Part shown: positions 56,485 to 59,890 of the stretch, in pieces | How the letters are laid out: each line of letters begins with the position of its first letter | Numbering within the stretch: the first letter of the stretch is position 1 | From: Clostridiales bacterium S5-A14a | GTDB taxonomy: Bacteria > Bacillota > Clostridia > Peptostreptococcales > Anaerovoracaceae | Assembly (NCBI GenBank): GCA_000758905.1 | Contig: JRNA01000009.1 | Span: 1-64,000 of the forward strand | Direction of reading: 5' to 3' | Length of the DNA: 64,000 nt | Program-made: the position numbers and the translations under genes | The notes under the pieces: generated by a model | Told to the model about the DNA's origin: nothing | What the model saw: the letters and a program-made list of their open reading frames with translations, nothing else | Database searches by the model: none

Positions 56485-57477
56485 TTATGCCTCCTTTGCA
56501 TCGAATCTCATTCCTTTGATAATTTTATTTCCCCTGAGAAACTCATCAGTCCTCATTCTTCTTTTACCCGGGGCCTGTATTTCCAAAACTCTTATTCTCT
56601 CGACTCCATCGCTACCACAGGCAATAACAAAGGAATCGTCATCGACATAAACGATTTCACCAGGCTTTGCACCGTCTGATGATGAATTATCTGAATTTAA
56701 TGAACATCCAGAATTCTTGGTAGCATCAGCGAGTTCAAACTTCCAAAATTTATAGGTTTTGTCATCGATATTCGCGAATGTTCCCGGCCATGGATCATAT
56801 GCTCTACACATTCTCTCGATTTCAGCCGCTGACTTTGAAAAATCAATATGCCCATCCTGTTTTTTAATTATTCCACAGAAGGTTGCATCCGAGTGATTTT
56901 GGACCTCCGGATTAATATCATCAAACTCACTGAGCGTCTTAACAAGTAGCTCGGCACCAATTTCAGCCAAATGAGATTCGAGTTCACCTGCAGTTCTTCC
57001 TTCAATGTCAACTTCAACCTTCGAGTACACAGGGCCACTGTCAAGTTCTTCCTCCAGTTTCATTATACTAATACCAGTGGGATCATCTCCATACAAAATA
57101 GCGGTCTGAATGGGTGAGGCTCCTCTTAGTTTAGGTAATAGCGATGCATGAACGTTTATATATCCCTTTCTCGGCATCTCCAAAACTTCTTTTGGTAATA
57201 TCTGACCATAGGCGACAACTATTCCTATATCAGCCTTCTCATGAGCTTTCCTAAGTTTTTCCTTAGCTTCCTCATCATTTCTAAGCTTTACAGGCTGAAT
57301 AACAGGAATCTCATTTGCAATTGCAAGTTCTTTAACGGGCGAACAGATTATTTTCTTTCCTCTATTTTTTCGCCTATCAGGCTGTGTAACCACAAGATCA
57401 ATATTGTGACCGCTCTCTATTAACTTTTTAAGAGAAACCGCTGCAAAATCAGGTGTTCCCATGAATACAATATTCAC
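56485..57477 (-). CDS. fmt: methionyl-tRNA formyltransferase
   Basis: A 330-residue enzyme that formylates initiator Met-tRNA using 10-formyl-THF. Motifs: MGTPDFAAVSLKKLIES, VVTQPDRRKNRGKK, VVAYGQILPKEVLEMPR, NVHASLLPKLRGASPIQTAIL with the catalytic His, EELDSGPV and YDPWPGTFANI. The start is GTG with GGAG eight bases upstream. It lies ten bases after def, as usual. Confidence 0.96.
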   Translation of the reverse strand: MNIVFMGTPDFAAVSLKKLIESGHNIDLVVTQPDRRKNRGKKIICSPVKELAIANEIPVIQPVKLRNDEEAKEKLRKAHEKADIGIVVAYGQILPKEVLEMPRKGYINVHASLLPKLRGASPIQTAILYGDDPTGISIMKLEEELDSGPVYSKVEVDIEGRTAGELESHLAEIGAELLVKTLSEFDDINPEVQNHSDATFCGIIKKQDGHIDFSKSAAEIERMCRAYDPWPGTFANIDDKTYKFWKFELADATKNSGCSLNSDNSSSDGAKPGEIVYVDDDSFVIACGSDGVERIRVLEIQAPGKRRMRTDEFLRGNKIIKGMRFDAKEA

Positions 57478-57487
57478 TGTCTATCTC

Positions 57488-58051
57488 CTATTCTTCCGAT
57501 GAAGATCCCTTACTTGCTGCAGTCTTATCTTCTGATTTAGCTCTTTCAACAGCAGCTTTCTCCGCAGCTTCTTCAGCCAAACGGGTCGCTTCTTCCACCG
57601 TCATCACATCCGTTGCTATATCTGTATATAGTACACCGTTAAGATGATCATTTTCATGGCACATAACCCTAGCCTCGAAATCCTCAAAAGTATATTTATT
57701 CCTCACGCCCTCAAGATCAGTTGCTTCGATTACTATCTTTTGTGGCCTCTTAACAGTCCCTATCATACCCGGTACGCTGAGACAGCCTTCTCTATCGTAA
57801 GTCTCGCCTTCCTGGCTCAAAATCTCAGGGTCAATCATATAATACGGCTCTTCATCCTCATAAGGTTTGGCAATAAACATCCTCCTCATCACTCCAATCT
57901 GTGGAGCTGCTATGCCAACACCATTTTCTTCCTCCATGGTTTCTAACATATCGGAAAGTGTCTCTCGGACTCTATCGTTCACATCACCAACGGGTCTACA
58001 CGTCTTTCTTAAAATTTCATCGCCGTCGACTCTTATTTTTCTTGTCGCCAT
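57488..58051 (-). CDS. def: peptide deformylase
   Basis: A 187-residue metalloenzyme removing the N-formyl group from nascent proteins. The three conserved motifs are present: GVGIAAPQIGV, EGCLSVPG and CHENDHLNGVLY with HExxH in the HENDH form. A C-terminal tail of about 30 residues is acidic and Lys/Ser-rich. GGAGG precedes the ATG. It lies 15 bases after priA. Confidence 0.96.
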   Translation of the reverse strand: MATRKIRVDGDEILRKTCRPVGDVNDRVRETLSDMLETMEEENGVGIAAPQIGVMRRMFIAKPYEDEEPYYMIDPEILSQEGETYDREGCLSVPGMIGTVKRPQKIVIEATDLEGVRNKYTFEDFEARVMCHENDHLNGVLYTDIATDVMTVEEATRLAEEAAEKAAVERAKSEDKTAASKGSSSEE

Positions 58052-58066
58052 ACTTCCTCCAAAATA

Positions 58067-59890
58067 TCAATAAGGGTTAAAGTCGAGCATAATACTCGTT
58101 CCATCCCTATCTTTTGCTAACTTAATACTGAATAAATTGCACGTTCTTACAAGTTTTGATCTAAGCTTTGGCGGACATTTGCACGTTGCAATTACCCTAG
58201 ACTTTTCATCCCCTTGAAACATAACGTCTTCTCTTGGTGATAAAAACTGCAATTCCTTTAATTCGTTTATCCCCGCAATATACTTCAAATACTTATCTAT
58301 TTTTTCTCTGCAGAGTTTTGAATTTTTACCGGAAACAGCAATCTCAACTATATCTGAAAATGGTGGATAATCCATCATTTTTCTCAGCTTTATCTCCCTT
58401 TGATAAAAAACGTCATATCTATTATTGATAGCGGCGTTGATATAAAAGCTGTCACTATCCATTGTCTGGACCAAAACATTTGCATGAAAGTCTCCCCGTC
58501 CTGCTCTTCCTGCAACCTGGGTTATGAGCTGGTAAGTCCTCTCTCCACCTCTGTAGTCGCCTGACCTGATTGAGCTATCAGCAGCTATGATGCCTACAAG
58601 TCCAACATTCTTGTAATCTATGCTTTTTGCAATAATCTGTGTTCCGATCAGAATATCGTGCAAACCTAGTTCATATTCATCCATGATGCTTGAAGCGAGT
58701 TTGCTTTTCGTCGCAATATCCATATCGAGTCTTGCGGCACTATACTCAGGGAAGAGTTTCTCGCAAGCAAGTTCAATTGCCTGTGTAATATCTCTCCTAT
58801 TCGCAAACAAAATAACCTGCCTCTGCGATTCAATTGTTTTGTTGATTTCAGAATATAACCTGCTGCTAATTAGTCCGGCGTTTCCTCCACGGATTTCATC
58901 CCTCATATCGATCAAGTCCATCTTAGGCAGAGGTGCCTTGTTGTATCTTTGTGTCAGTTTCAGCAAGGTATAAATCCCGCTCTCGGCTCTATAATATGAC
59001 ACAACTGACGGCGTAGCAGATCCTAAAATTAGTACCGATTTATTCATCTGTGACATCTTATATGCAATATCGACCGTTTCATATTTTGGTGTCATATCTG
59101 ATTTATATGCATTTTCATGCTCTTCATCCATTATGACTACGCCCAAATTCTTAATTGGAGCAAACAAAGCACTCCTCGTGCCTAGGATAATTTTTGAATC
59201 GCCCTTATAGACCTTCTCCCATTGCAGAAATCTTTGTGATGGGTTAAGTCTGCTGTGGATTACTGATATTACTTCACTGCCGAATCTAGCGACAAGACGC
59301 CTTAAAATTTGATCAATATGCGTAATTTCTGGAACAAGATAAACCGCTGTCTCACCTCTTGAGAGTGACTTTTCAATAGCTCTAAAGTAAACTTCGGTCT
59401 TCCCGCTTCCCGTTACTCCGTGAAGCAAAAAAGTTTTATTTTCTTTAGACTCAATTGACGACAAAATAGTTTTAACCGCAAGGTCCTGCTCATCTGTCAA
59501 TTTACCAATATTCATGCTTTCACTGGCAGTACCATTTAGCATGTCCTGGGTTATTTTTTTCTTTGGTCGCCTGCCCTGAGGAAAAAAAAGCTTGAGTGCA
59601 TCAATTTTCCTAATTGCATATCTTGAAGTCATCCACAACGCAAGATTCACGGCATCTTCTGTCAAACTAAATGCTTCAAATACAGAATCTATTTTTTTAA
59701 TTTTAATATCCGAATTTTCGATTTCTTCTATTTTGCTTTCGGCTACTACAACAGCGATCTTAAGCTTGGTAGATTTGCCGAAATCTACTAGCACAACCGT
59801 GCCGATTTCTAGTTTTGACTCTGATGAATAGGTATATCCTATGTCTGTCATCCTGCTTCGGTTATCTACAACTAGATTATAATAATACAT
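58067..59890 (-). CDS. priA: PriA replication restart helicase, minimal form without WH and zinc domains
   Basis: A 607-residue PriA; homologues run to about 730-800. The 3' DNA-binding domain (MYYYNLVVDNRSRMTDIGYT) is recognisable. Walker A LLHGVTGSGKTEVYF is near residue 150, and VVIMDEEHENAYKSDMTPKY, LILGSATPSVVSYY, ILIGTQIIAKSIDYKNV and ERTYQLITQVAGRAGRG are all present. Two parts are missing: the winged-helix segment is reduced to about 20 residues, and after QVILFANRR the chain goes straight to ELACEKLFP, skipping the eight-cysteine zinc module. The usual KGHD reads KSID. No frameshift is needed to explain it. Context priA-def-fmt supports orthology. Confidence 0.9.
   Translation of the reverse strand: MYYYNLVVDNRSRMTDIGYTYSSESKLEIGTVVLVDFGKSTKLKIAVVVAESKIEEIENSDIKIKKIDSVFEAFSLTEDAVNLALWMTSRYAIRKIDALKLFFPQGRRPKKKITQDMLNGTASESMNIGKLTDEQDLAVKTILSSIESKENKTFLLHGVTGSGKTEVYFRAIEKSLSRGETAVYLVPEITHIDQILRRLVARFGSEVISVIHSRLNPSQRFLQWEKVYKGDSKIILGTRSALFAPIKNLGVVIMDEEHENAYKSDMTPKYETVDIAYKMSQMNKSVLILGSATPSVVSYYRAESGIYTLLKLTQRYNKAPLPKMDLIDMRDEIRGGNAGLISSRLYSEINKTIESQRQVILFANRRDITQAIELACEKLFPEYSAARLDMDIATKSKLASSIMDEYELGLHDILIGTQIIAKSIDYKNVGLVGIIAADSSIRSGDYRGGERTYQLITQVAGRAGRGDFHANVLVQTMDSDSFYINAAINNRYDVFYQREIKLRKMMDYPPFSDIVEIAVSGKNSKLCREKIDKYLKYIAGINELKELQFLSPREDVMFQGDEKSRVIATCKCPPKLRSKLVRTCNLFSIKLAKDRDGTSIMLDFNPY

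What the first reader, a model, noticed from the sequence alone, without database searches (positions are those of the whole stretch)
58067..59890. PriA without winged-helix and zinc modules
The coding frame is continuous and all helicase motifs are recognisable, yet the region between the 3' DNA-binding domain and the helicase is only about 20 residues, and the zinc module with its eight cysteines is absent between QVILFANRR and ELACEKLFP. The usual KGHD box reads KSID. Zinc-module cysteines are generally needed for primosome protein loading in model PriA proteins. Either this lineage restarts forks in another way, with changed partner contacts, or the module was lost with adaptation. The position in the priA-def-fmt order shows it is the resident PriA.
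Basis: partly seen in the sequence, partly recalled or inferred. Interest (0 to 1): 0.62.

Follow-up and report, generated by a model that had tools for sequence, protein, structure and literature searches.

The report
Replication-restart helicase missing its zinc module
Three related bacteria carry as their only PriA (the protein that restarts stalled DNA replication) a normal, selected gene that has cleanly lost the zinc-binding module considered essential in E. coli, and two of the proteins it works with have changed unusually fast alongside it.

Summary
The ORF at 58067-59890(-) is an intact 607-aa PriA with all helicase motifs. It has no winged-helix (WH) domain and no cysteine-rich region (CRR, two Zn). 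It is the only PriA in a 99.96%-complete genome.

The two losses differ in age. WH absence is typical of the whole family and also seen in spirochaetes, so it is ordinary. The CRR loss is rare: a clean in-frame removal of about 60 residues, shared by three congeners at 58-72% identity. No other case appeared among 350 family genomes or 398 sampled phylum genomes. One congener, G002, keeps only four of the eight cysteines; another, G003, keeps all.

The gene is under strong purifying selection (pN 0.16, pS 0.72). A confident model shows a clean HD2 in which one strand runs directly into the next helix. PriA, DnaD and the replicative helicase are the three fastest of 22 orthologues in the genus. 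In the CRR-less trio the extra change is confined to HD2+CTD.

Best reading: a minimal, ungated, pin-less PriA that still hands forks to DnaD, with its loader-docking face permanently exposed and DnaD and the helicase co-adapted. Function was not tested.

The parts
58067..59890 (-). priA CDS, 607 aa, without WH and CRR
   Evidence: TIGR00595 399.6 bits, cut-off 230.35; single copy
59555..59890 (-). 3' DNA-binding domain (aa 1-112)
   Evidence: PF17764 40.4 bits; model strands E2-8, E18-23, E32-36, E43-51
59501..59554 (-). short linker (aa 113-130) where the WH domain would be
   Evidence: alignment to relatives; lower pLDDT, about 70, at aa 111-130
58937..59500 (-). helicase lobe 1 (HD1, aa 131-318); Walker A aa 158-166 at 59393-59419, DEEH aa 255-258 at 59117-59128
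58373..58936 (-). helicase lobe 2 (HD2, aa 319-506), with no inserted CRR
58784..58801 (-). deletion junction NRRDIT (aa 364-369): strand 358-363 runs straight into helix 366-379; relatives have about 60 aa with 8 Cys here
58616..58627 (-). KSID (aa 422-425), motif V, KGxD in most PriA
58070..58372 (-). C-terminal domain (aa 507-607), divergent: PriA_C 19.7 bits against a cut-off of 26.9
57488..58051 (-). def (peptide deformylase), downstream neighbour
   Evidence: reading of the translation; control orthologue
56485..57477 (-). fmt (methionyl-tRNA formyltransferase), downstream neighbour
   Evidence: reading of the translation; control orthologue

Best explanation
This is the orthologous, working PriA reduced to 3'BD-HD1-HD2-CTD. 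WH was lost early in the family; the CRR was lost once in the common ancestor of three congeners by a clean in-frame removal. It most likely binds forks through the 3'BD and helicase lobes, is recruited by the SSB tail, and keeps ATPase and translocation. It cannot form the CRR-framed lagging-strand pore or use the CRR beta-hairpin as an unwinding pin. In E. coli the CRR covers the HD2/CTD site where DnaT docks until fork DNA is bound. Without it the equivalent site would be open all the time, so DnaD (the Firmicutes protein that binds PriA through its C-terminal region) could dock without a switch, and gating would have to come from DnaD, SSB and the DNA. Shown: architecture, distribution, selection, lineage rates. 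Inferred: exposed docking site, weak unwinding, DnaD docking there.
For: Single intact priA. pN 0.161 against pS 0.724 between G000 and G004, HD2 no less constrained than the rest. High-confidence model (pLDDT 89.9, pTM 0.89) with strand to helix continuity at the junction; best PDB match is fork-bound E. coli PriA 8fak_H, TM 0.84. PriA, DnaD and the DnaB-type helicase rank 1-3 of 22 orthologues in lineage rate for G000 (z 4.7, 3.2, 2.2), G003 (5.8, 3.5, 3.0) and G002 (8.4, 4.0, 4.8); DnaA and DnaN do not stand out. Trio/G003 distance ratio is 1.23 for HD2+CTD and 1.02 for 3'BD+HD1; bootstrap difference 0.05-0.37, 0/200 at or below zero. Seven of eight trio-wide changes at conserved sites lie in HD2. 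SSB tail EDDLPF is kept. Literature: CRR pore, pin and PriB dock (PMC10175261); DnaT docks on HD2/CTD, occluded by CRR in apo PriA (PMC13377028); DnaD C-terminal region binds PriA (PMC4909229).
Against: No biochemical data. The DnaD docking site on any PriA has not been mapped in what I read, so the DnaT analogy is inference. Acceleration also affects G003, which keeps its CRR, so it predates the loss and may reflect genus-wide relaxation. The control set is 19 genes from a few loci; dS is saturated. In E. coli, CRR variants lose PriB-dependent loading, and the CRR hairpin is reported as essential for unwinding.
Confidence: 0.5

Rival explanations
1. PriA in this genus is under relaxed constraint: restart matters less in small (1.4-1.8 Mb) genomes, and the CRR was lost as part of slow decay together with its partners.
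For: PriA, DnaD and the helicase are fast in all five congeners, including CRR-bearing G003. G002 has a degraded CRR (4 of 8 Cys) and an altered motif II, DEEQ. PriA_C scores fall in the trio and G002.
Against: pN/pS is low throughout, HD2 included. All ATPase and helicase motifs are intact in the trio. The deletion is clean and conserved across three species.
Confidence: 0.25
2. The protein remains a full helicase because another element (linker, aromatic-rich loop, or DnaD) has taken over the separation-pin role of the CRR hairpin.
For: Helicase motifs are intact. RecG and other SF2 relatives lack a CRR yet unwind DNA (family knowledge). PMC10175261 suggests PriB may act as the wedge in E. 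coli.
Against: No new insert is shared by the trio; only G001 has one, about 32 aa before Walker A. PMC10175261 calls the hairpin essential for unwinding in E. coli.
Confidence: 0.17
3. It has left replication restart and become a different SF2 translocase.
For: Loss of two of the six PriA domains; 30-45% identity to more distant relatives.
Against: It is the only TIGR00595-level protein in the genome, in the usual position, with the PriA 3'BD, PriA motifs and SSB-tail partner retained. Its rate covaries with DnaD and the helicase.
Confidence: 0.06
4. Assembly or sequencing artefact, or a second intact PriA elsewhere.
For: At least two of the three genomes are MAGs.
Against: The same junction appears in three assemblies at 58-72% protein identity; the genome is 99.96% complete and no second PriA is found.
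Confidence: 0.02

Closest known systems
E. coli PriA (PDB 8FAK, fork-bound; 6DCR, engineered WH deletion)
   Same: 3'BD, HD1, HD2, CTD, helicase motifs; TM 0.84 to 8fak_H and 0.77 to 6dcr_A
   Different: No CRR, so no pin, pore or PriB dock; no WH; KSID for KGHH
WH-less PriA of the same family and of spirochaetes (e.g. Borreliella tanukii L087)
   Same: 3'BD joined almost directly to HD1
   Different: They keep the eight-cysteine CRR
Deinococcus radiodurans PriA pseudohelicase (PMC4504706)
   Same: A natural PriA variant that departs from the canonical protein
   Different: There the ATPase motifs are lost; here the ATPase motifs are kept and the CRR is lost
G002 congener PriA (L040)
   Same: Same genus; CRR reduced to four cysteines, divergent CTD
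   Different: Retains part of the CRR (PF18319 24.4 bits), 737-aa open frame, altered motif II

Membership tests
PriA orthologue (TIGR00595 equivalog) | Score above curated cut-off | tested here: met
   399.6 bits against 230.35
PriA orthologue (TIGR00595 equivalog) | PriA 3' DNA-binding domain | tested here: met
   PF17764 40.4 bits, cut-off 22.7
PriA orthologue (TIGR00595 equivalog) | SF2 motifs I, II, III, V, VI in PriA form | tested here: met
   Invariant columns G158, S162-K164, D255-E257, A292, P294, Q458, G461, R462, R465; motif V altered to KSID
PriA orthologue (TIGR00595 equivalog) | Sole PriA of the genome, next to def and fmt | tested here: met
Canonical six-domain PriA | Cysteine-rich region with two Zn sites inside HD2 | tested here: not met
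   No PF18319; no match to CRR profile A3 in the genome; junction NRRDIT
Canonical six-domain PriA | Winged-helix domain between 3'BD and HD1 | tested here: not met
   18-residue linker
Canonical six-domain PriA | C-terminal domain (PriA_C) | tested here: inconclusive
   19.7 bits, below the cut-off of 26.9, but end to end (1-95/95) and modelled as folded
Canonical six-domain PriA | 3'-5' unwinding and helicase loading | not testable with these tools
   needs purified protein

The most novel reading that the evidence does not exclude
A natural ungated PriA shows that the CRR switch (pin, pore, partner gate), central to the E. coli model, can be dispensed with when DnaD and the replicative helicase co-evolve with PriA; the trio, with G002 and G003, would form a series of congeners with full CRR, half CRR and none.
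Probability: 0.4. Interest if true: 0.72.

Novelty: new variant of a known kind. Interest (0 to 1): 0.55.

Why it matters
Recent structures make the CRR the switch that couples fork recognition to primosome assembly in E. coli, yet its role outside the PriB/DnaT system is poorly known. A selected, single-copy PriA that has lost it, beside close relatives that keep all or half of it, provides natural deletion mutants for asking which of the three CRR jobs (pin, pore, partner gate) is essential in DnaD-type bacteria. I found no description of a CRR-less PriA in the papers searched, a limited open-access library.

Tried and rejected
Assembly error or second PriA: rejected. WH loss as the novelty: rejected, because it is family-wide. 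Other CRR-less PriA in the family: besides the trio, 20 genomes lacked a CRR-profile match. The 17 listed by name, and by the PriA table most likely the three not listed, have no PriA or only a fragment; G030, G140, G230 and G359 were re-checked and are fragments. Other candidates in the phylum sample: single-match genomes keep the eight-cysteine cluster or are truncated. Zinc sparing as cause: unlikely, because DnaD of the same genome keeps a cysteine motif at its C-terminus; not tested further. The DnaC-like ATPase in G000 and G001 as a compensating loader: rejected, because it lies among conjugative-element-type genes and has no counterpart in G004. PADLOC hits: weak helicase cross-matches only.

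Full report
1. The thing itself. The ORF at 58067-59890 on the minus strand encodes 607 aa from ATG to stop. It scores 399.6 bits against the PriA equivalog TIGR00595 (cut-off 230.35) and carries the PriA 3' DNA-binding domain, DEAD and Helicase_C, with a weak PriA_C. The zinc-ribbon family of PriA (PF18319) is absent from it and from the other two CRR-less proteins, but present in CRR-bearing relatives scanned as controls. All catalytic motifs are intact. Motif V reads KSID.

2. Not an artefact and not a paralogue. The host genome (1.53 Mb, 99.96% complete) has no other PriA; the secondary matches are Mfd- and RecG-like. Two congeners, G004 (JAQYRL01) and G001 (JALENW01), share the same architecture and the same junction, NRRD[IY]T, at 72% and 58-61% identity. 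Between G000 and G004, pN is 0.161 and pS 0.724 (saturated); HD2 is no less constrained than other domains. The gene is under purifying selection.

3. Two losses of different age. Most family members have PriA of about 664-704 aa that aligns without a gap from residue 1 to about 372, so they lack WH; other families of the order mostly have 750-850 aa. A few genera of the family have longer forms. WH-less PriA is also found in spirochaetes (L087). By contrast, a profile of the CRR alone (A3) matched 327 of 350 family genomes. The 23 without it are the trio plus 20 others. Of those 20, the 17 listed by name have no PriA or only a fragment in the PriA search. Three were not listed; the PriA table makes G359, G365 and G369 the likely ones, and G359 was re-checked and is a fragment. 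In a phylum sample of 398 genomes, nearly all PriA matches break into two pieces at the CRR; G000 is the only full-length unbroken one. Other single-piece genomes keep the eight-cysteine cluster or are truncated. Congener G003 keeps a full CRR; congener G002 keeps four of eight cysteines. That these four correspond to one of the two zinc sites is my recollection of the E. coli arrangement, not tested.

4. Structure. AlphaFold2 models of G000 PriA (pLDDT 89.9) and G003 PriA (91.0) are confident. In G000, strand 358-363 leads directly to helix 366-379, where G003 has the inserted CRR. The closest solved structure for both is fork-bound E. coli PriA, 8fak_H (TM 0.84 and 0.86).

5. Partners. Every one of the 12 genomes searched has a DnaD with two DnaB_2 stretches; where read, its gene lies directly after the replicative helicase gene. 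No chromosomal DnaI/DnaC-type loader was found with PF01695. The hits common to all genomes I read as DnaA and RuvB from length and position; the DnaC-like hit in G000 and G001 sits among conjugative-element-type genes. The SSB tail in G000 is EDDLPF.

6. Rates. For 22 orthologues on a fixed tree of eight genomes, distance to outgroups was scaled by outgroup-outgroup distance. PriA, DnaD and the replicative helicase are the top three in the G000 lineage (2.16, 1.88, 1.71; control mean 1.32, s.d. 0.18; one control, ZnPept, ties the helicase at 1.71) and clearly so in G003 and G002; DnaA and DnaN do not stand out. The acceleration is genus-wide and so predates the CRR loss. In the trio a further excess is restricted to HD2+CTD (ratio to G003 1.23, against 1.02 for 3'BD+HD1; bootstrap 0/200). 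Seven of eight trio-wide changes at otherwise conserved sites are in HD2.

7. Mechanism. In E. coli the CRR supplies the unwinding hairpin, frames the lagging-strand pore, and docks PriB (PMC10175261). It also hides the HD2/CTD surface on which DnaT docks until fork DNA is bound (PMC13377028). [quoted passage not shown] there DnaD binds PriA through its C-terminal region (PMC4909229) and PriA-DnaD-DnaB is the restart pre-primosome in B. subtilis (PMC13220808). A PriA without CRR should therefore present its HD2/CTD face permanently, not enclose ssDNA, and unwind poorly. Faster change in HD2, CTD, DnaD and the helicase is what co-adaptation of that interface would leave, though relaxed constraint on the whole pathway would look partly similar.

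8. Verdict. A true PriA orthologue by descent, but not a canonical six-domain PriA: a new variant of a known kind. The loss is well established; the working model is inference at about even odds.

Noticed in passing
L040 (G002, congener), PriA: Very divergent PriA (about 30% identity within the genus) with only four of eight CRR cysteines and DEEQ for DEEH: apparently a second, separate degradation.
   Followed up: partly
L005:955-2871 (G001), just before Walker A: About 32-residue insertion unique to G001 in HD1, upstream of GVTGSGKT.
   Followed up: no
L122:7132-8445(-) and relatives: DnaD of this family has two DnaB_2 stretches and a C-terminal cysteine motif (CxxCxDT...CxC) and directly follows the replicative helicase gene; no DnaI/DnaC-type gene is adjacent.
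   Followed up: partly
L105, L106 (G000:C19, G001:C29): Closely similar element-borne DnaC-like ATPase with a replication-initiator-like gene and a conjugation-type coupling-protein-like gene: a conjugative element in two of the three species.
   Followed up: partly
family genomes G088, G280, G317 (91-96% complete): No PriA recovered at all; probably assembly gaps, but possibly real absence.
   Followed up: no
L186 and L193 (G074): The priA reading frame is split over two contigs and the CRR carries an insertion between its cysteine pairs.
   Followed up: no
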